DNA of 29,241 bases, from positions 1-29,241 of the IMG/VR virus record IMGVR_UViG_3300020558_000022, one strand, 5' to 3'. Position numbers and translations under genes: made by a program. Shown here in pieces: positions 11,473 through 26,184 of the stretch (positions are counted from its first letter, which is position 1; each line of letters opens with the position of its first letter). Source of the stretch: a virus. The notes beneath the pieces were generated by a model that was not told the origin of the DNA, ran no database searches, and saw only the letters and a program-made list of their open reading frames with translations.

Positions 11473-11756
11473 ACAACCATCCTTATCAGACCAACAGTGT
11501 CAATAGTTGTCAGCAGAAGGTAGTTAGCCAACATGCCAAAAGACTTTCTAGTGTAAGCAGCCCAAGCGTACAAAGAACAACCAAGAATCCAAATGGGATA
11601 AAGAATAAGTAGCGGAGGGTTGGGTACAGTGAGCGCCATTGTAATAGAACAGCCAATACTGATAGCCCAAGCCAACAACTCAACGAAAAAACGAAAAGTA
11701 TGAGAGTGGTAGTCATCTTTTATCCAATCAAAAGTTGGCTTCAATAAGTCGTGCAT
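11469..11756 (-). CDS. Small membrane protein between gp44 and gp62
   Basis: A 95-residue protein with about three hydrophobic segments: roughly 22-45 (FFVELLAWAISIGCSITMAL), 49-67 (LLILYPIWILGCSLYAWAA) and 74-94 (MLANYLLLTTIDTVGLIRMV). The N-terminus (FDWIKDDYHSHT) is polar. Motifs such as LYPIWILGCSLYAWAA and SFGMLANYLLLTTID recall a membrane protein that I remember at a similar place in cyanophage genomes. ATG 11756 overlaps the GIY-YIG gene by 16 bases. Function unknown; its place inside the clamp-loader operon might reflect membrane tethering of replication, which is speculation. Confidence 0.75.
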   Translation of the reverse strand: MHDLLKPTFDWIKDDYHSHTFRFFVELLAWAISIGCSITMALTVPNPPLLILYPIWILGCSLYAWAAYTRKSFGMLANYLLLTTIDTVGLIRMVV

Positions 11757-12244
11757 GTATTTTCCAATTGAATCTGTAAAGAACTTATGTCTCTGTTACG
11801 ATAGATTTCATTATTAAATTTTGGCTTCAAATCATATATCAATTGAGTTTCAATGTCTTCCATGGTAACATCACACAATAATGTAGTGTAAACCAAAGGA
11901 ATAATTTTCAGCTTTTGATTCAAATTTTTCCTACCAAAAACTTTCACAAACTTATGTGCGGCTGGATGATTCTCATCGCAACGTTCAGTTCCCCGTATAC
12001 CAGCAAACCACCGACCAATTCTATTTCTAACTGTATGGTTTGAGTGTCCAATATAAACTAGTTCATCATCATGATAGATAAAATATAGGCCGGCACCATC
12101 AATAAAGTCATCAGCTATAACTCCCTTATCAGTCTCAAAATTTGGCTTTATAGAAATAAAATTCGTATATTTTAATTCTTGAATAATTTTTGACGAATAA
12201 TCTTCCGCTGTAACATCAAAGTTACCAAAAACATTTCTTCTCAT
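11741..12244 (-). CDS. GIY-YIG family nuclease
   Basis: A 167-residue protein with a GIY-YIG core: GLYFIYHDDELVYIG at about 52-66, an arginine-bearing helix (TVRNRIGRW) and a glutamate helix (MEDIETQLIYDLKPKFN). The two tyrosine motifs, arginine and glutamate of the catalytic site all appear present. ATG 12244 overlaps the gp44 stop as ATGA; a TTG-initiated extension would overlap gp44 further. Such genes in T4-like phages are often free-standing homing endonucleases that target the flanking conserved gene. No zinc-finger or NUMOD-like DNA-binding tail is evident, so a repair or structure-specific role is also possible. Confidence 0.82.
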   Translation of the reverse strand: MRRNVFGNFDVTAEDYSSKIIQELKYTNFISIKPNFETDKGVIADDFIDGAGLYFIYHDDELVYIGHSNHTVRNRIGRWFAGIRGTERCDENHPAAHKFVKVFGRKNLNQKLKIIPLVYTTLLCDVTMEDIETQLIYDLKPKFNNEIYRNRDISSLQIQLENTCTTY

Positions 12245-13176
12245 TTGAACTCCACACTGACCATCAATTCGGTCAAACATGCAACGGTGTTAATCTCAGC
12301 ATCTGCAACAAATGCTTGTTTGTACTGATAGTCAGCTAAAATAATAACTGCTTGCGGAATGCTTTGAGGTTGCAAAACATCATACAGACTATCATAAATC
12401 TTACGATAGAGATTTGCTGCATCAATATCATTCGAAGCAACCCACTTACGAATTGCACCAAAGTTTTTCTCTTTCAGGTAACCAACAATCTCATCGATTG
12501 TGATATCACCAATTTGTGCAAGAATGCCAGTGTCGATTGTCTTGGTGTCATTCGAAGAATAACGCTGCAACTCGTTAAGCACACGCCGAAAATCAGGAAA
12601 ATGTTTCTTGATAACTTCAGCGATAACTTTCTGGTCGAAGTTTACACCTTCTTCATTCAGAATATTATTGACACGTTTAAAGAACTGAGAAGCCATAGTT
12701 GCTTTCTCAGAAGCTTTCATTGTGAAATCAATAACTGCACAACGAGAGTGCAGTGGTTCAATCATCTTGTTCTTGAAGTTACAAGTAAAGATGAAAGAAC
12801 AATTCGAAGCAAATTCTTCAATGACATTACGAAAAGCAGCTTGAGCATTTGTGGAAAGATAGTCGGCCTCATCAACAATAATAACTTTACGACCACCAGT
12901 GAACGACATGGTCGAAGCAAAGTTTTTGATTTTGGAACGAACAACATCAACACCAGTCTCATCTGAACCATTAATGATTAGATAGTCGGCATTGATTTCA
13001 TTACACATTGCTTTTGCAACGGTAGTCTTACCAACACCTGCGCCGCCATGCAGCAACAGGTTTGGAATTTCATTTTTGTTCACATAGTCCTGAAAGGGCT
13101 TCTTCATTCTTTCAGGAAGAATACACTCAGCTACAGTTTTAGGACGGTGTTTCTCCGTCCAAAGAAGATGTTCCAT
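12241..13176 (-). CDS. 44: Clamp-loader large subunit gp44 (AAA+ ATPase)
   Basis: The 311-residue ATPase (T4 gp44 has 319) that opens and loads the sliding clamp. The N-terminus LWTEKHRPKTVAECI is the RFC/gp44 signature; Walker A is GAGVGKT at 45-51, Walker B VIIVDEADYL with D102/E103, and the arginine-finger SRC motif is at 144-146. ATG 13176 follows GAGG at normal spacing. gp45 and a 60-residue gene precede it; RegA, encoded downstream, is known in T4 to repress this transcript. Confidence 0.97.
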   Translation of the reverse strand: MEHLLWTEKHRPKTVAECILPERMKKPFQDYVNKNEIPNLLLHGGAGVGKTTVAKAMCNEINADYLIINGSDETGVDVVRSKIKNFASTMSFTGGRKVIIVDEADYLSTNAQAAFRNVIEEFASNCSFIFTCNFKNKMIEPLHSRCAVIDFTMKASEKATMASQFFKRVNNILNEEGVNFDQKVIAEVIKKHFPDFRRVLNELQRYSSNDTKTIDTGILAQIGDITIDEIVGYLKEKNFGAIRKWVASNDIDAANLYRKIYDSLYDVLQPQSIPQAVIILADYQYKQAFVADAEINTVACLTELMVSVEFK

Positions 13177-19226: not shown

Positions 19227-19266
19227 GATATCTAGAAGTTACGTATGGAGTGTAACTCAAGATATC
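19227..19266 (-). repeat. Interrupted inverted repeat over the -10 of the CobT-like gene promoter
   Basis: Arms GATATCT and AGATATC (7 bases) and inner arms GTTAC and GTAAC (5 bases) are separated by short mismatched segments around a 9-base centre that includes part of the -10 box. The dyad is centred at about 19247 and only its downstream half would be in the RNA, so it looks like an operator for a dimeric repressor rather than a leader structure. Confidence 0.5.
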
Positions 19267-19277
19267 GACCATGTCAA
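19249..19277 (-). promoter_or_regulatory. Sigma70-like promoter of the CobT-like gene (TTGACA-17-TACACT)
   Basis: TTGACA at 19277-19272 and TACACT at 19254-19249 on the minus strand are 17 bases apart, giving a leader of about 19 bases before the ATG. It lies in the 67-base gap after the DruA-like gene, which has no evident terminator. Confidence 0.7.
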
Positions 19278-19290
19278 GTACAGAGAAAGT

Positions 19291-20628
19291 TTATCTACCG
19301 ACCTGTTGTAGATACTTTTGTTTCGTTTCTTCCCAGGACATATAAATCAAGTCATCATAGAACAAGGTTTCATATGAAACATTGCCCTTTTTGACAAGTT
19401 GTTTTATTCGTCCCTTGGCGTGCTTTTCTTTCCAGATGTTGACCAAGGAATCATAGCTGGTATCGAAAGACTTTACAAGTTTATCCTCAGTTATTTCTTT
19501 CCGTAGGAATTCATTTGTGTTGTCGTACAGTGGGCTAAAGTAAATACCACGAGCGTGTTCGCTACGGATAAGTTCTTTAGGCACATTCATTTTGCCGTAG
19601 GTGAATGCGAGTGAACGATTCTTATGGTCACGCTTGAATGGTTGACCAGCAGGGTTCGTTGCAACATACCATTCAAAGTATTTCTCGGTATGATTTTTCT
19701 TCAACCACTGCTCAACATCTTTTCTAGCTTTTCTGCTAGGCTCAAATGATACGGAACCAGAAGTAAAGCCCATAGGTTTCCAATGGTCAAGATTGTCATA
19801 TTGACTTAGACCACCAGCTTTTGTTTTACCATACAATGAAGTTGTTGTGACACCAACAAGAACATCACCATATGTTTTCTTCCATAGTCGCTGAACTTCA
19901 TCGGACAAGCAAAGCAGTGCCAGCAATTTACCACCAACATAGTTGAAACCAAGAGGTTGGAAAGGAACAATTGTCGAACCAATCGCAGTATGATTAATCA
20001 TTCTGCCCTGAGTCTTTGTTTCTCTAGACCAACCAATGAAGTTATCTCTTGGTGTCAAGTCAAGAAAGTCGGATGAGATACAGATAACACCAAGATACTT
20101 ACCGCTTGCATCATCTTTGACAAGAAAGTTTAGATTTCTACCGATGTTGGAGTTGTTCTTCATTGTAGAAATAAATGTGCGTGTCGTGTTCCATAAAACA
20201 GGAAGTTCTTTGCTTCGCTTTGTGTCGTGTTTTACCACACTACCATCTATTCCTGTCGTGAAATTTGAACCCGAATCATCAGTGTATTCAAGCACAGGTT
20301 GAAGCTTGAGATAATCTTCAGGCGATTCTGGAATCCAGATATTCTCTTTAACAGAACGAATGATATCTTCCTGAGAAATATCGACAAGTTGATTCTCAAC
20401 ACCAAAGATGGTATTGGTTTCTACAGTAGGATACTTCTCATGAATCTCACACCACTTTTGATAGAGTGTGTACTCTTTAACGTCCATTTGTGAGACATAA
20501 CCAAGTTCACGAATGACTCTATCAGTCAGTTCTTTCTCATCTACATCACAAAAGGAATCGGTGGGATTTTGTGATGACCACTCATCCCATTGTTTTTGAA
20601 TATCTGGTGTCCAGTTTTCGCTACTCAT
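19291..20628 (-). CDS. DruA-like protein (DUF4338 family)
   Basis: A 445-residue protein whose central region (about 165-295) carries the features of the DUF4338 family: LVKDDASGKYLGVICISSDF, RDNFIGWSRETK, the small-residue stretch INHTAIGSTIVPFQ, then GGKLLALLCLSDEV, LWKKTYGD, and VTTTSLYG with a C-terminal HWKPMGFTSG. This family includes DruA of the bacterial Druantia anti-phage system, where its biochemical activity is unclear. Residues 1-110 and 330-445 are specific to this protein. No helicase-type druE neighbour is present. ATG 20628 overlaps the deformylase stop as ATGA. A defence-like, counter-defence or DNA-processing role is open. Confidence 0.8.
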   Translation of the reverse strand: MSSENWTPDIQKQWDEWSSQNPTDSFCDVDEKELTDRVIRELGYVSQMDVKEYTLYQKWCEIHEKYPTVETNTIFGVENQLVDISQEDIIRSVKENIWIPESPEDYLKLQPVLEYTDDSGSNFTTGIDGSVVKHDTKRSKELPVLWNTTRTFISTMKNNSNIGRNLNFLVKDDASGKYLGVICISSDFLDLTPRDNFIGWSRETKTQGRMINHTAIGSTIVPFQPLGFNYVGGKLLALLCLSDEVQRLWKKTYGDVLVGVTTTSLYGKTKAGGLSQYDNLDHWKPMGFTSGSVSFEPSRKARKDVEQWLKKNHTEKYFEWYVATNPAGQPFKRDHKNRSLAFTYGKMNVPKELIRSEHARGIYFSPLYDNTNEFLRKEITEDKLVKSFDTSYDSLVNIWKEKHAKGRIKQLVKKGNVSYETLFYDDLIYMSWEETKQKYLQQVGR

Positions 20629-21218
20629 TTGATTTTAGAAATTTTCCGAATAAGTTTTTTCTGCCTCTTTTTTGCCAACTCAAGTGCAAGAGGTCCAACT
20701 TTGTTAGTATACACTACTCCATTCATGTGGTCAAGCTCATGCTGGTAAACTTGTGCGGAAATACCTTCAAGTGTTGTGGTATTATATTCACCAAGATGGT
20801 CAAAATGTTCAACAACAATCTTTTTATACCTAGGAACATTGAGATACAAACCTGGGTATGACAGGCAACCTTCTCGCATTTTTTCTGGTTCACCGAAAGT
20901 TTCAACAATTTTAGGATTAATACAGACCATTTGAAATTCATCAGAACCCATAACGAACATACGGAATCTAATACCACATTGATTAGCCGATAAGCCAAGT
21001 CCGCCATAAGTTGTCATCGTCAACTTTAATTGCTTGATGAACTTTTGAATTTCTGGATTCATCACTTGTGACAAATCAAATTCTTCCATTCTCTCAGCAA
21101 GTTTAGGATGCCCATCGCTAAGAATCGGCAAAGGAAGAATTGGTTCTTCAACAACCCTTGTCGGCGCTGTCGTATTAATGACTAAAAAATCATCTTGTTG
21201 TGTTTCAACTACATTCAT
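20625..21218 (-). CDS. def: Peptide deformylase
   Basis: A 197-residue metal-dependent deformylase that removes N-formyl from nascent proteins. Motif 1 is GLGLSANQ at 73-80, motif 2 EGCLS at 116-120 (metal ligand C118) and motif 3 HELDH at 160-164 (H160, E161, H164), all intact. The length is slightly above the 150-190 typical of bacterial enzymes because of a short N-terminal extension. Deformylases are frequent in T4-like cyanophages, where they may favour processing of phage or host photosystem proteins. Start ATG 21218 overlaps the gp46 stop as ATGA. Confidence 0.95.
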   Translation of the reverse strand: MNVVETQQDDFLVINTTAPTRVVEEPILPLPILSDGHPKLAERMEEFDLSQVMNPEIQKFIKQLKLTMTTYGGLGLSANQCGIRFRMFVMGSDEFQMVCINPKIVETFGEPEKMREGCLSYPGLYLNVPRYKKIVVEHFDHLGEYNTTTLEGISAQVYQHELDHMNGVVYTNKVGPLALELAKKRQKKLIRKISKIK

Positions 21219-22927
21219 TTTACTATCCTTGAAAAATTATTTACTTTATCAAACCTAATTACATTACGGAATTTGTCTTGCAGAATGTCACCCTTATGTG
21301 AGATAACAAACAGATTAACATCTTCCAAGATATGCAAAAGGTTCATCAGATATTCTGTACCATTTGCATCTAAACTACTATCAAACACTTCATCAAGAAT
21401 CAACAAGTTAGTATTTGTTGAGTTCTTCATCTTAGCAACGGCTCGCCAAGTTAACATCAGTGCCATGTCGATACGTTGCTTTTCACCTTCACTGAAAGAA
21501 GCATAACTAAATTCATCACGGTGTCTGGATTTAATTGTCTCCTTGAATGATTCGTCCAGATTAAAGTTGACAAAGAAATCTAGAGTTGCAAGATATTTGT
21601 TTACTAACTTATTGATTACTGGCAAGTATTGTTTAACAATTTTTGTTTTGATACCAGTATCTTTCAGCAAGATAGAAGCGACTTCATACTCTGCTTTTTC
21701 TTCAATCAGTTTCTTCTTCTGAGAACTCAACTCTGTCAACTTATCTTCCAACTCTTTGAGTTTGGTATTCTCCAAATCAAGGTTTTTTTTATTGTCTTTC
21801 AGTGCCTGAATTTCTTTGCGAATCTTACCAATGTATTTGTTTGTTTCAGTAATGGTAGTATTCTTTTGTACAATTTGAATATTCAGTTGCTGAATCTGTT
21901 TCTGAAATTCCGAAATAGAATTTAGTTTATCTTGTTCTTGGAGTAATTTTGCCTCCAATTGGCTGAGACCATGTTCACATTCTTTAACCTTGTTGGTGAT
22001 ACTGGATAGCTCCGCCTCTTTAAACTCCATGGCAATGGTTTGCCTGCACGTTGGACAATTATCATTTGCCTCAAAGAAATGTATATCTCGTCGAAATTTT
22101 GATAAGTTTGTTTCAATTTGCGATTCAAGTTTATTAAGTTTCTTGACCTTATTCTCAACTTCAGATTTACCAGAGATTTGTTCGGTGAGTGTCGAAACAT
22201 TCGATGTAAGTCTATCAACTTCGACATGTAAGGTTTGTACCAAACTATCACTACTCTCAATCTCTTTTTCATACTCTTTTACTTTGTTCTCATTGTTCTG
22301 CTTCAATTTTTCTATTTGAGTTTTTTGATTCTCATAGTTCTGTTCAGCAAGTTCAATTGCAAATTTGTTTTCGGTAATCTCATCTTTGTTCAGAGATACT
22401 TTCTCTTTCAATAAAGAATTCATCGTAGAAAAGATTTGAATATCCAATAACTCCTCAATGATGGCTCTCCTGTCGGCAGCAGACAGTTGCATGAAAGGAG
22501 TAAAAGATGCAGAACCAAGTATAACAATCTGCGTGAAAGACTTGTAGTTTAGTTTGAGAATTTGCTTCTCAAGTATTTCTTGATAATCTCTTGATGCTGC
22601 TTCTTGATTTAGTATTTCACCGTTCAAATAGATTTCAAAAATGCCTGGCTTTATACCACGGACAATACGATACTCTTTTTTACCGATGGAGAAACAACAT
22701 TCAACAACACAATCTTTTTGGTTGATTGAGTTGATAAGTTGTGGTTTGTTAATGTTTCGGAATGCTTTACCAAACAACACAAAGCACAGTGCATCCAACA
22801 TAGTGGATTTGCCTGCGCCGTTTGTACCAACAACCAAGGTATTTGGTGCTTCATCGAATTTAATTTCGGTGAAGTAATTACCTGTCGATAAGAAGTTCTT
22901 AAATTTTAAACTCTTGAAAAAAATCAT
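21215..22927 (-). CDS. 46: Recombination endonuclease subunit gp46 (Rad50/SbcC-like)
   Basis: A 570-residue ABC-type ATPase (T4 gp46 has 560) that with gp47 resects DNA ends for recombination and degrades host DNA. Walker A is GTNGAGKST at 34-42 in the first lobe; long coiled coils (about 170-430) surround a zinc hook CPTC at 291-294; the signature FSEGEKQRIDMAL and Walker B LLILDEVFD lie near 475-515. The first ATG shares its A with the stop of the oxygenase gene between it and gp47. Confidence 0.96.
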   Translation of the reverse strand: MIFFKSLKFKNFLSTGNYFTEIKFDEAPNTLVVGTNGAGKSTMLDALCFVLFGKAFRNINKPQLINSINQKDCVVECCFSIGKKEYRIVRGIKPGIFEIYLNGEILNQEAASRDYQEILEKQILKLNYKSFTQIVILGSASFTPFMQLSAADRRAIIEELLDIQIFSTMNSLLKEKVSLNKDEITENKFAIELAEQNYENQKTQIEKLKQNNENKVKEYEKEIESSDSLVQTLHVEVDRLTSNVSTLTEQISGKSEVENKVKKLNKLESQIETNLSKFRRDIHFFEANDNCPTCRQTIAMEFKEAELSSITNKVKECEHGLSQLEAKLLQEQDKLNSISEFQKQIQQLNIQIVQKNTTITETNKYIGKIRKEIQALKDNKKNLDLENTKLKELEDKLTELSSQKKKLIEEKAEYEVASILLKDTGIKTKIVKQYLPVINKLVNKYLATLDFFVNFNLDESFKETIKSRHRDEFSYASFSEGEKQRIDMALMLTWRAVAKMKNSTNTNLLILDEVFDSSLDANGTEYLMNLLHILEDVNLFVISHKGDILQDKFRNVIRFDKVNNFSRIVK

Positions 22928-23535
22928 TATCTAAATTTAGGTCCAGTGACCCACGAAACCAAAGATTTTCTCACACCCTCAGTTACTGGTGTTACTCTAT
23001 GCATGAAGAAAGAAGGAAACAATAGCATATCACCTTTTTTCAAATTATGTCTGATAGGTTCTTGACTAACCAAAAATTCAAAATCACCACCAACATAGTC
23101 ATCATTCAACATAAGAGAAAAGGATAATTTTCTAGTCATATAGTCATATTCATTTTGTGGAATTGCATCATGAATAAAATCAGTATGAAAATCATATCGA
23201 CCACCATCTTCTGCTCTATACTCAGAATATTGAATTGAATCATATCCATTCAAATCAAAATTATAATATTCTTCATTAACAGTTTCGATTACTTTGTTTA
23301 TCTTTTCAAACAACCATTTAGTTTCTTGGCTATAATCAAAAAAATGAATTTTGCTTTTTCTCGCTTTTTCTATTTTGCCTTCTAGACCAACTTCACCATC
23401 AGTCAACTCTTTATCTGTTAAAAAATTTTCAACAATTTCAATCTCCGCCTCATTCAAAAATCTATCAACTTTAACAGAATGAGTAAACAAAAATTCTCTA
23501 GATAGGGAAAAATTTATCAATTTATTATAAGGCAT
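22927..23535 (-). CDS. 2OG-Fe(II) oxygenase between gp47 and gp46
   Basis: A 202-residue dioxygenase of the prolyl-4-hydroxylase type. The iron triad is H117-T-D119 (in YDFHTDF) and H179 (FFMHRV), and R189 (GVRKSLVSW) would bind 2-oxoglutarate. Segments SFSLMLNDDYVGGDFEF and GDMLLFPSF are typical of the jelly roll. The gene is coupled on both sides by TAATG overlaps and looks more AT-rich than gp46 and gp47, hinting at later acquisition. Substrate unknown: proteins or nucleic acids are both possible for phage members of this group. Confidence 0.88.
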   Translation of the reverse strand: MPYNKLINFSLSREFLFTHSVKVDRFLNEAEIEIVENFLTDKELTDGEVGLEGKIEKARKSKIHFFDYSQETKWLFEKINKVIETVNEEYYNFDLNGYDSIQYSEYRAEDGGRYDFHTDFIHDAIPQNEYDYMTRKLSFSLMLNDDYVGGDFEFLVSQEPIRHNLKKGDMLLFPSFFMHRVTPVTEGVRKSLVSWVTGPKFR

Positions 23536-24605
23536 TATTCAATACTTTCCATGTTGATAGCTTCGACATATAACTCACGCATAATTTTTTTAAGTTTATC
23601 AGATTCAATGTTGGTTGTCAACCCATCAATATACTTATTCAGAATCGTTATTGTATCTTCTGCCTGGTCTATGACTTCATCATCACCATTAAGAATTGAA
23701 TCTGAAAAGTCCTCAACAACAACTACATCAGCAGCGCCAGCTTTAACAAGATTATCCAAAACAAAATCAAACATGTAAGAATTGTTTTTGTTTATGGTGA
23801 CAATTTTTACATACGTGTCTTTGTGCTGGGTATAATTATAGTTCTTCCAGAAATCGAAGTCTTGTACCGAATCATCATACTGTACTTTATAAAACATTTT
23901 GTTCGGGTTAGGAACGAATGTCACCTCTCTGGTTTCCGTATCAAACACATGGAAGCCTCTCTGGTCATCGTAGTCCGCCCATGTTATTTCATACTGGTTA
24001 CCCAAGTATGTGATAGTTCCGTTTGTAGATTTGTGGTGAAAGTGTCCTGAAAGAACCATGTCAAATCTATCAAACAACTTGCTATCAAGACCTTCATGGC
24101 AAATGTTGCCTCGGTCCATTTCAAAACCTGCAATCTCAAAGTGACCGAAAACAATTTCACTTACAGAATTTTTCAATGCATCTAATGATTGGTCATAGTT
24201 GCCACTATTAATCCAAGGCATCAATAGAATAGGCAAACTACCATATTCTTTCAATACAGGTTCAGTAAACACATTGATGTTATCATAGTGGTCAAACAAC
24301 TCATTCATCGCATTGATTTCATTTGTGTTCTTATATGTCACATCATGGTTACCAACCAGAACATCCATGGTGATGTTTTCTTTTTGTAGAACATCAAAAA
24401 ATCTTTTGCGCCACTGATTTAAAATCACATAGTTAATAAATTTTCTGCGGTCAACTACATCACCCAAGTGTATCACATGAGTAATGTTATTCTCTTTCAA
24501 GTAAGGAAAGAATGTGCTTTCCCAGAACTTGAAAAAGAATTCGTTGAACAACAGACTGTCTCCTCGCGCTCCCGCATGAGTATCATTTATCAATGCAATT
24601 TTCAT
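23535..24605 (-). CDS. 47: Recombination nuclease gp47 (Mre11/SbcD-like)
   Basis: A 356-residue metallophosphoesterase nuclease (T4 gp47 has 339), partner of gp46. Motifs are D8/H10 (NDTH), GD at 48-49 (LGDVVDRR), GNHD at 85-88, GHFEIAG in the middle and SGHFHH near 200. The order of motifs and DVVDRRKFINY are those of T4 gp47. ATG 24605 overlaps the cytidylyltransferase stop as ATGA. Confidence 0.96.
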   Translation of the reverse strand: MKIALINDTHAGARGDSLLFNEFFFKFWESTFFPYLKENNITHVIHLGDVVDRRKFINYVILNQWRKRFFDVLQKENITMDVLVGNHDVTYKNTNEINAMNELFDHYDNINVFTEPVLKEYGSLPILLMPWINSGNYDQSLDALKNSVSEIVFGHFEIAGFEMDRGNICHEGLDSKLFDRFDMVLSGHFHHKSTNGTITYLGNQYEITWADYDDQRGFHVFDTETREVTFVPNPNKMFYKVQYDDSVQDFDFWKNYNYTQHKDTYVKIVTINKNNSYMFDFVLDNLVKAGAADVVVVEDFSDSILNGDDEVIDQAEDTITILNKYIDGLTTNIESDKLKKIMRELYVEAINMESIE

Positions 24606-25063: not shown

Positions 25064-25648
25064 TTATAAGTTGTCAGGTATTTGTTCAATTATTTCAGGC
25101 AATTCTTCCAAGACAACATCTTCTTCAATAAACTTGTCTAAACCTTTTGCCTTGGTTTTTTTCTTTGCTTTTTTCTTTTCTTCAAACGTCTGAATGAATT
25201 CAGAAATGTTATCATACAAAACAAACTGTTTCACATTGCCCTCAGAATCCTCAAAGAGTTCTGCTTCATCCAGTATACCAAACTGTTCCGTTGCTTTGTA
25301 CTTGACATAAAGTTGTTTCTTCTCTTTCTGTATTCTCCTTAAGAATGCAAAGTAGATAATCTGTGTGAAGTATGCAAATGGATTGGTCGACTTTGTTGGG
25401 TCAAAGTTCCTAAAATACATAATGCAGTTTTCAATGCCGTCACATATCATTTCTTCTCTAAAGGAATATGAAATGAAGTTTGGCTTTCTGGATAAATGTT
25501 CTGCAATTTTCAGAAAACATTCTCCAATATAGTTGGGTACAATTGGTTCTTCTCTGTTTTCTTTTTTTGCGATATCACAAGATTGCTTATAATCGATAAG
25601 TGCCTGTAAAAAATCGGGGTTGTTGACATAGTGTTTTGTTTTAGACAT
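25064..25648 (-). CDS. 55: Late-transcription sigma factor gp55
   Basis: A 194-residue divergent sigma factor (T4 gp55 has 185) that guides host RNA polymerase to TATAAATA-type late promoters. The match includes YVNNPDFLQALIDYKQSC, IGECFLKIAEHLSRKPNF, FREEMICDGIENCI, NFDPTKSTNPFAYFTQIIYFAFLRRIQKEKK; the acidic C-terminus probably holds a clamp-binding tail. The ATG at 25648 lies 6 bases inside the oxygenase 3' end, without a clear ribosome binding site. A lysine-rich stretch around 155-170 is unlike T4. A matching late promoter is at 1236-1243. Confidence 0.95.
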   Translation of the reverse strand: MSKTKHYVNNPDFLQALIDYKQSCDIAKKENREEPIVPNYIGECFLKIAEHLSRKPNFISYSFREEMICDGIENCIMYFRNFDPTKSTNPFAYFTQIIYFAFLRRIQKEKKQLYVKYKATEQFGILDEAELFEDSEGNVKQFVLYDNISEFIQTFEEKKKAKKKTKAKGLDKFIEEDVVLEELPEIIEQIPDNL

Positions 25649-26114
25649 ATGTGGGTTTTACTTTGTAACTCCATGGATTAATTGCTAATGATATTCTTTG
25701 TCCTTCAAATTTTTCCACGCAATGATGTATGCCAGGAGAAAAACATAAAAGACTATTTTGTTTTGGTTTGATTGAGACATGCTCAGTAATAAAGTTGCCG
25801 CCGGAAATCAAATCTATTTTAGGATAGTAAACAATACTACAAATAGGAAATTTACCTTTGTCATTTGATTCATCGGTATCATAGTGCCAACCCTTATCGA
25901 CGTTGTAGTTCACCCAATATTCAAAACCAACCATACTGGATAAATCAAAAAACTTTGAAACACTCAATAATAAACTACCTACTGCTGAATCAGAAAGTTT
26001 TTCAGCATCATTCAAGGTAAAATCTTTCCAATTGAATGGTACAGGAAATTGACAATATCCCTGAATTTCTTTTTCTTGCTGCTCGTTCAAAACATCATCC
26101 ACAACAACTAACAT
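25641..26114 (-). CDS. Second 2OG-Fe(II) oxygenase
   Basis: A 157-residue dioxygenase-fold protein with H77 and D79 (HYDTDE), a distal H130 or H131 (GIHHCVEKF) and R140 (GQRISLAINPW). GGNFIT and SLLCFSPG are typical strands. ATG 26114 with AGGTAAAG upstream is preferred to a TTG at 26141. The protein is unlike the oxygenase at 22927 in sequence, so it is not a recent duplicate. It precedes gp55 with a short overlap. Substrate unknown. Confidence 0.82.
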   Translation of the reverse strand: MLVVVDDVLNEQQEKEIQGYCQFPVPFNWKDFTLNDAEKLSDSAVGSLLLSVSKFFDLSSMVGFEYWVNYNVDKGWHYDTDESNDKGKFPICSIVYYPKIDLISGGNFITEHVSIKPKQNSLLCFSPGIHHCVEKFEGQRISLAINPWSYKVKPTYV

Positions 26115-26118
26115 TTCT

Positions 26119-26184
26119 TTACCTAAAAAAAGACTTGACAACTTTCAGACTGTCTCTTACAATCTCGGTGTTGCCTTTAATCAA
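26119..26184 (-). CDS. Possible 21-residue mini-ORF
   Basis: A TTG at 26184 overlaps the Sm-like stop codon (ATTGA), has AAGGAAA upstream, and opens a 21-codon frame that ends 4 bases before the oxygenase ATG. The peptide (MIKGNTEIVRDSLKVVKSFF then R) would be a basic amphipathic helix. The tight fit suggests coupling, but TTG starts are weak and a frame this short can occur by chance. Confidence 0.25.
   Translation of the reverse strand: MIKGNTEIVRDSLKVVKSFFR
26135..26163 (+). promoter_or_regulatory. Possible antisense promoter on the plus strand (TTGACA-17-TACAAT)
   Basis: The plus strand has TTGACA at 26135-26140 and TACAAT at 26158-26163 with a 17-base spacer, as good as the minus-strand promoters. 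It would transcribe against the Sm-like gene and uvsW, where no plus-strand gene exists. It lies in one of the few intergenic gaps. Confidence 0.35.

What the first reader, a model, noticed from the sequence alone, without database searches (positions are those of the whole stretch)
19291..20628. DruA-like (DUF4338) protein carried by a T4-like phage
The central 130 residues match the family that gives Druantia its name, yet it sits in a phage recombination operon, coupled to peptide deformylase, and has long unique N- and C-terminal regions. It could be inter-phage defence, a decoy or antagonist of host Druantia, or a clue that DruA's basic activity is in DNA processing.
Basis: partly seen in the sequence, partly recalled or inferred. 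Interest (0 to 1): 0.7.

Follow-up and report, generated by a model that had tools for sequence, protein, structure and literature searches.

The report
DruA-type GNAT protein in T4-like phages
A T4-like phage carries a real relative of the bacterial anti-phage protein DruA; it has the predicted fold of acyl-transferring (GNAT) enzymes, is linked through transposon-borne cousins to the phage Mu DNA-modifying enzyme Mom, and sits among the phage's DNA replication and recombination genes, so it may mark or handle phage DNA rather than fight other phages.

Summary
Observation confirmed, on the minus strand. The 445-aa ORF at 19291-20628 is a true DruA/DUF4338 (PF14236) protein (E 2.6e-22), under strong purifying selection, overlapping an upstream peptide deformylase gene by 4 nt (ATGA) downstream of gp47/gp46. 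It is not a Druantia system: no DruB-DruE lies beside it. The predicted fold is a GNAT acyltransferase; the highest-ranked solved structure is phage Mu Mom (Z 9.6), tied with other GNATs. Sequence links to Mom are indirect: transposase-fused DruA domains match Mom (hhalign E 5e-6; 0 of 150 shuffles) and match this phage family (1.7e-8); phage DruA does not match Mom directly. The serine at Mom S124 (its mutation inactivates Mom) is kept in the transposase-fused domains but is glycine in the phage and Druantia types, so chemistry cannot be assumed. The family is large, with two paralogous subfamilies among replisome genes, sometimes both in one phage. That cyanophages carry DruA-like proteins was already published. 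Best reading: a Mom-fold transferase acting on phage DNA or a DNA-bound partner (confidence 0.4). Decoy or inter-phage defence roles have little support.

The parts
19291..20628 (-). druA-like gene (DUF4338/PF14236), 445 aa
   Evidence: ORF; PF14236 E 2.6e-22; dN/dS about 0.04-0.06 to close relatives
19501..20199 (-). stretch matched by Pfam DruA, residues 144-376
19459..20319 (-). GNAT-fold region, residues about 104-390
   Evidence: AlphaFold2 model pLDDT 88.1; VIA-align: Mu Mom Z 9.6 over model 104-378, nearly all other top rows GNATs
19921..19971 (-). conserved strand-loop-helix IVPFQPLGFNYVGGKLL (residues 220-236), at the place of the GNAT acyl-CoA loop; G233 aligns through the transposase-fused DruA to Mom S124; K234 invariant
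   Evidence: invariant columns; hhalign; secondary structure; the equation with the GNAT loop is inference
19828..19845 (-). TTSLYG motif (residues 262-267); T262, S264 and G267 also invariant in the bacterial DruA sampled
20044..20052 (-). PR(D/N) motif (residues 193-195); R194 invariant in phage and bacterial DruA sampled
20625..20628 (-). ATGA overlap: druA start and peptide deformylase stop
   Evidence: sequence read; a short overlap or junction is common across related loci
20625..21218 (-). peptide deformylase gene upstream in the operon
   Evidence: PHROG 2890 E 3e-36; nearest recognised gene upstream of druA in 144 of 151 related loci of this type with sequence upstream
21215..22927 (-). 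gp46-like (Rad50-type) recombination nuclease subunit
   Evidence: ORF; annotated homologues in Mosig and HTVC008M
23535..24605 (-). gp47-like (Mre11-type) recombination nuclease subunit
   Evidence: ORF; annotated homologues
19249..19277 (-). sigma-70-like promoter (TTGACA-17-TACACT) between druA and the peptidase gene
   Evidence: consensus scan; such matches are hardly above chance (53 found, 44.9 expected)

Best explanation
Shown: the gene encodes a DruA/DUF4338 protein with a predicted GNAT acyltransferase fold, belonging to a phage-specific branch of the DruA family placed among T4-type replication and recombination genes. Inferred: it works like Mom in the broad sense. It is made with the replisome, engages phage DNA (or a DNA-bound partner) at or behind the fork, and transfers a small group from an activated donor using the invariant R194 / GGK234 / T262-S264 site, so that progeny DNA or its processing is protected from host nucleases. 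The donor, the group and the acceptor are unknown. Because the serine required in Mom is glycine here, the chemistry must differ from Mom's, or the protein may be a non-catalytic DNA-binding derivative.
For: DruA family. GNAT fold: model pLDDT 88.1; highest-ranked solved structure is Mu Mom, Z 9.6, 176 of 202 residues aligned, nearly all other top rows GNATs; a lower-confidence model of bacterial DruA gives the same picture, with Mom the longest alignment in the list (177 residues, Z 8.5). DUF4338 is called a GNAT domain in PMC10853773. Link to Mom: transposase-fused DruA versus Mom, hhalign E 5e-6, score 46.3 against a maximum of 20.1 in 150 shuffles; 3 of 5 such domains match Pfam Mom and none matches any other GNAT family; transposase-fused DruA versus this phage family E 1.7e-8, 65.4 against a null maximum of 25.7. 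Placement: 144 of 151 loci of this type behind peptide deformylase; 63 loci of the sister subfamily behind gp44 and 61 before gp62; a second copy directly behind gp43 in HTVC008M and behind gp41 in another phage. Catalytic-like conservation across phage and bacterial DruA: R194, K234, T262, S264, R360, N370, W399 in 29 of 29.
Against: Direct comparison of the phage family with Mom is not significant (4 of 150 shuffles as good). Mom's Z of 9.6 is tied with polyamine acetyltransferases at 9.1. The position of Mom S124 is G233 here, and Mom D149 aligns to L265. The canonical GNAT CoA-loop glycines are only partly kept. The window protein is not basic overall (pI 6.3), unlike bacterial DruA and Mom. 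In cyanophages the gene is patchy: about 26 DruA-positive records against about 437 with gp44, so it is not an essential replication factor there. I know of no base modification reported in these phages.
Confidence: 0.4

Rival explanations
1. A GNAT that modifies a protein (host or phage replication, transcription or nuclease protein) during takeover, with no DNA product.
For: Nearly all best structural matches are protein or small-molecule acetyltransferases; phage GNATs that acetylate host RNA polymerase are known (PMC7824862).
Against: No Pfam match to any GNAT family other than DruA, and the transposase-fused relatives match Mom only. Placement follows replisome genes, not takeover genes.
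Confidence: 0.25
2. A non-catalytic Mom-fold DNA-binding accessory of recombination or replication (for example, modulating gp46/gp47 end processing).
For: The Mom serine is lost. The gene neighbours gp46/gp47 in this type and in S-B68. Some bacterial DruA genes lie in an operon with NurA-type nuclease and HerA-type ATPase genes.
Against: Invariant polar residues across about 20% identity suggest an active site; the gene is absent from most cyanophages.
Confidence: 0.2
3. Inter-phage defence: a DruA used against superinfecting phages.
For: Family membership with Druantia type I DruA (hhalign E 1e-14 to an alignment that includes DruA of a locus whose DruB, DruC and DruD models match). Patchy presence in cyanophages.
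Against: No DruB-DruE or other defence partner next to it; PADLOC hits among the neighbours are generic Rad50-, 2OG- and helicase-type matches. It is embedded in core DNA genes rather than in a variable island.
Confidence: 0.1
4. Decoy or antagonist of host Druantia.
For: Homology to DruA only.
Against: The residues shared across phage and bacterial DruA sampled are kept. The phage clade is internally duplicated and deeply split. PF14236 is found in only 16 of 274 (gamma) and 10 of 289 (alpha) proteobacterial genomes sampled, so few hosts would have it. The host of this phage is unknown.
Confidence: 0.05

Closest known systems
DruA of Druantia type I (PF14236, DUF4338)
   Same: Same Pfam family; hhalign E 1e-14 to an alignment with DruA of a locus that has DruB, DruC and DruD matches; shared R, GGK, TxS and W positions; same GNAT-type fold in models
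   Different: Stand-alone in the phage; phage-specific acidic N-terminal region; separate clade; no DruB-DruE beside it
DruA-like proteins of Synechococcus phages (Phold paper, PMC12774648)
   Same: Same phage clade in the tree; already published as structurally similar to DruA
   Different: They are the sister subfamily, usually between gp44 and gp62; this protein belongs to the subfamily linked to peptide deformylase; about 25% identical
Mom of phage Mu (PF25680, PDB 8bv8)
   Same: GNAT fold, highest-ranked solved structure; homologous to transposase-fused DruA by profile comparison
   Different: No direct significant sequence match to this protein; Mom S124 is glycine here and D149 is not kept; this protein is nearly twice as long
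Transposase-fused DruA domains (ISAs1/Tn5-type elements)
   Same: Same Pfam family; profile match E 1.7e-8
   Different: They keep Mom-like serine, aspartate and tyrosine positions; fused to DDE transposase domains

Membership tests
DruA family (PF14236, DUF4338) | Match above the curated cut-off | tested here: met
   79.8 bits against 27, E 2.6e-22; all 63 relatives match at E up to 1
Druantia type I system | druB, druC, druD and druE next to druA | tested here: not met
   PADLOC scan of ten window neighbours gives no Dru component; a true type I locus scanned the same way gives DruB, DruC and DruD
GNAT superfamily | GNAT fold | tested here: met
   Predicted model only: nearly all top PDB matches are GNATs, Z 8-9.6; Foldseek top matches also mostly GNATs but at E > 0.03
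GNAT superfamily | Binding of an acyl-CoA donor | not testable with these tools
   Loop partly degenerate (GFNYVGGKLL); no ligand or assay
Mom family (PF25680) | Match to the Mom profile | tested here: not met
   No Mom match listed for the 63 phage proteins at E up to 1; hhalign not significant
Mom family (PF25680) | Serine required for activity (S124) | tested here: not met
   Aligns through transposase-fused DruA to G233; requirement taken from the PDB title 'inactive mutant S124A'
Mom family (PF25680) | Modification of adenine in DNA | not testable with these tools
   Needs LC-MS of phage DNA

The most novel reading that the evidence does not exclude
DruA/DUF4338 is a branch of Mom-type, nucleic-acid-modifying GNATs. 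In many marine and freshwater T4-like phages one or two paralogues travel with the replisome genes and install an undescribed mark on progeny DNA; Druantia type I would then be, at root, a modification-based system.
Probability: 0.25. Interest if true: 0.85.

Novelty: new variant of a known kind. Interest (0 to 1): 0.55.

Why it matters
The activity of DruA, which gives Druantia its name, is to my knowledge unknown. Finding it as a common two-paralogue family in T4-like phages, with a GNAT fold and a traceable sequence link to the DNA-modifying enzyme Mom, turns 'what does DruA do' into a direct test: mass spectrometry of DNA from cultured phages that carry it (HTVC008M, Mosig, S-SSM7) against close relatives that lack it. 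No paper found in the open-access library searched links DruA to Mom.

Tried and rejected
Direct profile comparison of phage or Druantia-type DruA with Mom: no significant match. Search of solved structures by sequence with the phage or DruA alignment: nothing. NCBIfam: no match for the window protein. Replacement of DruA by Mom in related phages: Melnitz phages (Kyanoviridae) have Mom and no DruA match, but Mom lies in a different region and the four genomes are near-identical, so this is weak. I first took the phage for a pelagiphage because its DruA is closest to Mosig and HTVC008M; its UvsX is closest to an unassigned phage and Stenotrophomonas phages and its gp44 to Synechococcus phages, so the host is left open. 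Bacterial DruA model: mean pLDDT only 65.8, used as support only.

Full report
WHAT IS THERE. The ORF at 19291-20628 runs on the minus strand, 445 aa from ATG. Pfam DruA (PF14236, formerly DUF4338) matches at E 2.6e-22 over residues 144-376, PADLOC DruA at 3e-18, and a PHROG of unknown function at 6e-28. The gene is real and constrained: dN/dS about 0.04 and 0.06 against two close relatives, median 0.13 over 112 pairs, many of them near saturation.

SURROUNDINGS. The window is a 29 kb fragment of a T4-like phage (G000 is a virus record) with gp43, gp44, gp45, gp46, gp47, gp55, uvsX and uvsW homologues, most identified by similarity to annotated relatives. The gene overlaps the upstream peptide deformylase gene by ATGA. 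Its host is unknown: DruA is closest, among cultured phages, to Pelagibacter phages Mosig and HTVC008M (60% and 54%), gp44 to Synechococcus phages, UvsX to an unassigned phage and Stenotrophomonas phages. PADLOC on ten neighbours gives no Druantia component.

HOW WIDESPREAD. Two subfamilies exist. The one of the window sits behind peptide deformylase in 144 of 151 loci with sequence upstream; the sister one lies behind gp44 in 63 loci and before gp62 in 61 (cultured cyanophages). HTVC008M carries both: the first behind a gene at the deformylase position and a second directly behind gp43, overlapping it by 4 nt. A 169 kb IMG/VR phage also has two, the second behind gp41. In a tree all phage proteins sampled group together (96/95), split into the two subfamilies, apart from Druantia-type and other bacterial DruA (96/93), with transposase-fused domains on a long branch (long branches meet there, so that root is unsure). 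In public phage records about 26 cyanophage records carry it, against about 437 with a gp44 match, so there it is an optional gene at preferred places.

FOLD. An AlphaFold2 model from 63 relatives has pLDDT 88.1 and pTM 0.82. Foldseek against the PDB lists mostly GNAT acyltransferases, at weak E-values (best 0.035). VIA-align ranks phage Mu Mom first (8bv8_B, Z 9.6, rmsd 4.2, 176 of 202 residues), tied with spermidine acetyltransferases at 9.1. A weaker model of bacterial DruA (pLDDT 65.8) also gives GNATs, with Mom at Z 8.5 and the longest alignment in the list. The literature agrees on the fold: DUF4338 is called a GNAT domain in PMC10853773.

LINK TO MOM. The phage family does not match Mom directly (4 of 150 shuffled profiles score as high). 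But DruA domains fused to DDE transposases do: hhalign E 5e-6, score 46.3 against a null maximum of 20.1 in 150 column shuffles, and 3 of 5 hit Pfam Mom with no other GNAT family listed. The same domains match the phage family at 1.7e-8, 65.4 against a null maximum of 25.7. So DruA and Mom are probably one lineage within the GNATs. In the alignments, Mom S124 corresponds to an invariant serine of the transposase-fused domains but to G233 in the phage family, within GGK, and the Druantia type also reads GGK; Mom D149 corresponds to an aspartate in the transposase-fused domains and to L265 here. PDB 8bv8 is titled 'inactive mutant S124A'. The phage and Druantia types therefore share a different invariant set: R194, G233-K234, T262, S264, R360, N370, W399.

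HOW IT MOST LIKELY WORKS. Shown: DruA family, predicted GNAT fold, replisome-linked position, strong constraint. Inferred: a transferase acting on phage DNA or on a DNA-bound partner during replication, perhaps as protection against host nucleases, as Mom does for Mu. Not shown: donor, group, acceptor, catalysis. The lost serine means Mom chemistry cannot be carried over. Rivals are a protein-modifying GNAT, a non-catalytic accessory of end processing, an inter-phage defence protein and an antagonist of Druantia; the last two have little support.

NOVELTY. DruA-like proteins in six Synechococcus phages were reported in the Phold paper (PMC12774648), so the presence of DruA in phages is known. 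I found no paper in the library searched that links DruA to Mom, nor one describing the two phage paralogues or their placement; that library is open-access only, so this is not proof of novelty. In passing: bacterial operons joining DruA with NurA-type and HerA-type genes, DruA next to a GHKL-type ATPase in small, low-GC alphaproteobacterial genomes, and DruA-like models in giant viruses.

Noticed in passing
L384:6536-7660 (HTVC008M 99535-100659); L386:13366-14478: Second, cyanophage-type DruA paralogue in the same phage genome, directly behind gp43 (HTVC008M) or behind gp41 (IMG/VR phage G610).
   Followed up: yes
L372:4816-8901, L375:3284-7397, L376:6555-10728: Bacterial three-gene operon: DruA, a NurA-domain protein, and a HerA/DUF87-type ATPase; the NurA-domain proteins scanned in PADLOC have no match there, so this may be an undescribed system.
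   Followed up: partly
L370:4997-9087, L371:4885-8866: In small alphaproteobacterial genomes (GC of the stretches 27-34%) an enlarged DruA-like protein (640-737 aa) follows a GHKL-type (HATPase_c_3) ATPase gene.
   Followed up: partly
BFVD A0A3G4ZXG3, A0A5K0UAJ3, A0A3G4ZRA1: Giant viruses (Faunusvirus, Yasminevirus, Dasosvirus) encode proteins whose models match the window protein strongly (E down to 2e-20).
   Followed up: no
L325:1465-2547, L343:1474-3222, L324:1-2292: DruA domains fused to DDE transposases; those aligned keep Mom-like serine, aspartate and tyrosine positions.
   Followed up: yes
window 11741-12280, minus strand: GIY-YIG-like ORF between gp44 and gp62, the place where cyanophages carry their DruA.
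   Followed up: partly
L289:292-1101 (phage Melnitz-2): A Mom-family gene in a Kyanoviridae phage of Methylophilales that has no DruA match, annotated as DUF465.
   Followed up: partly
window 22927-23535 and 25641-26141, minus strand: Two 2OG-Fe(II) oxygenase-like genes in or near the recombination operon; Mosig has several more around its druA.
   Followed up: no
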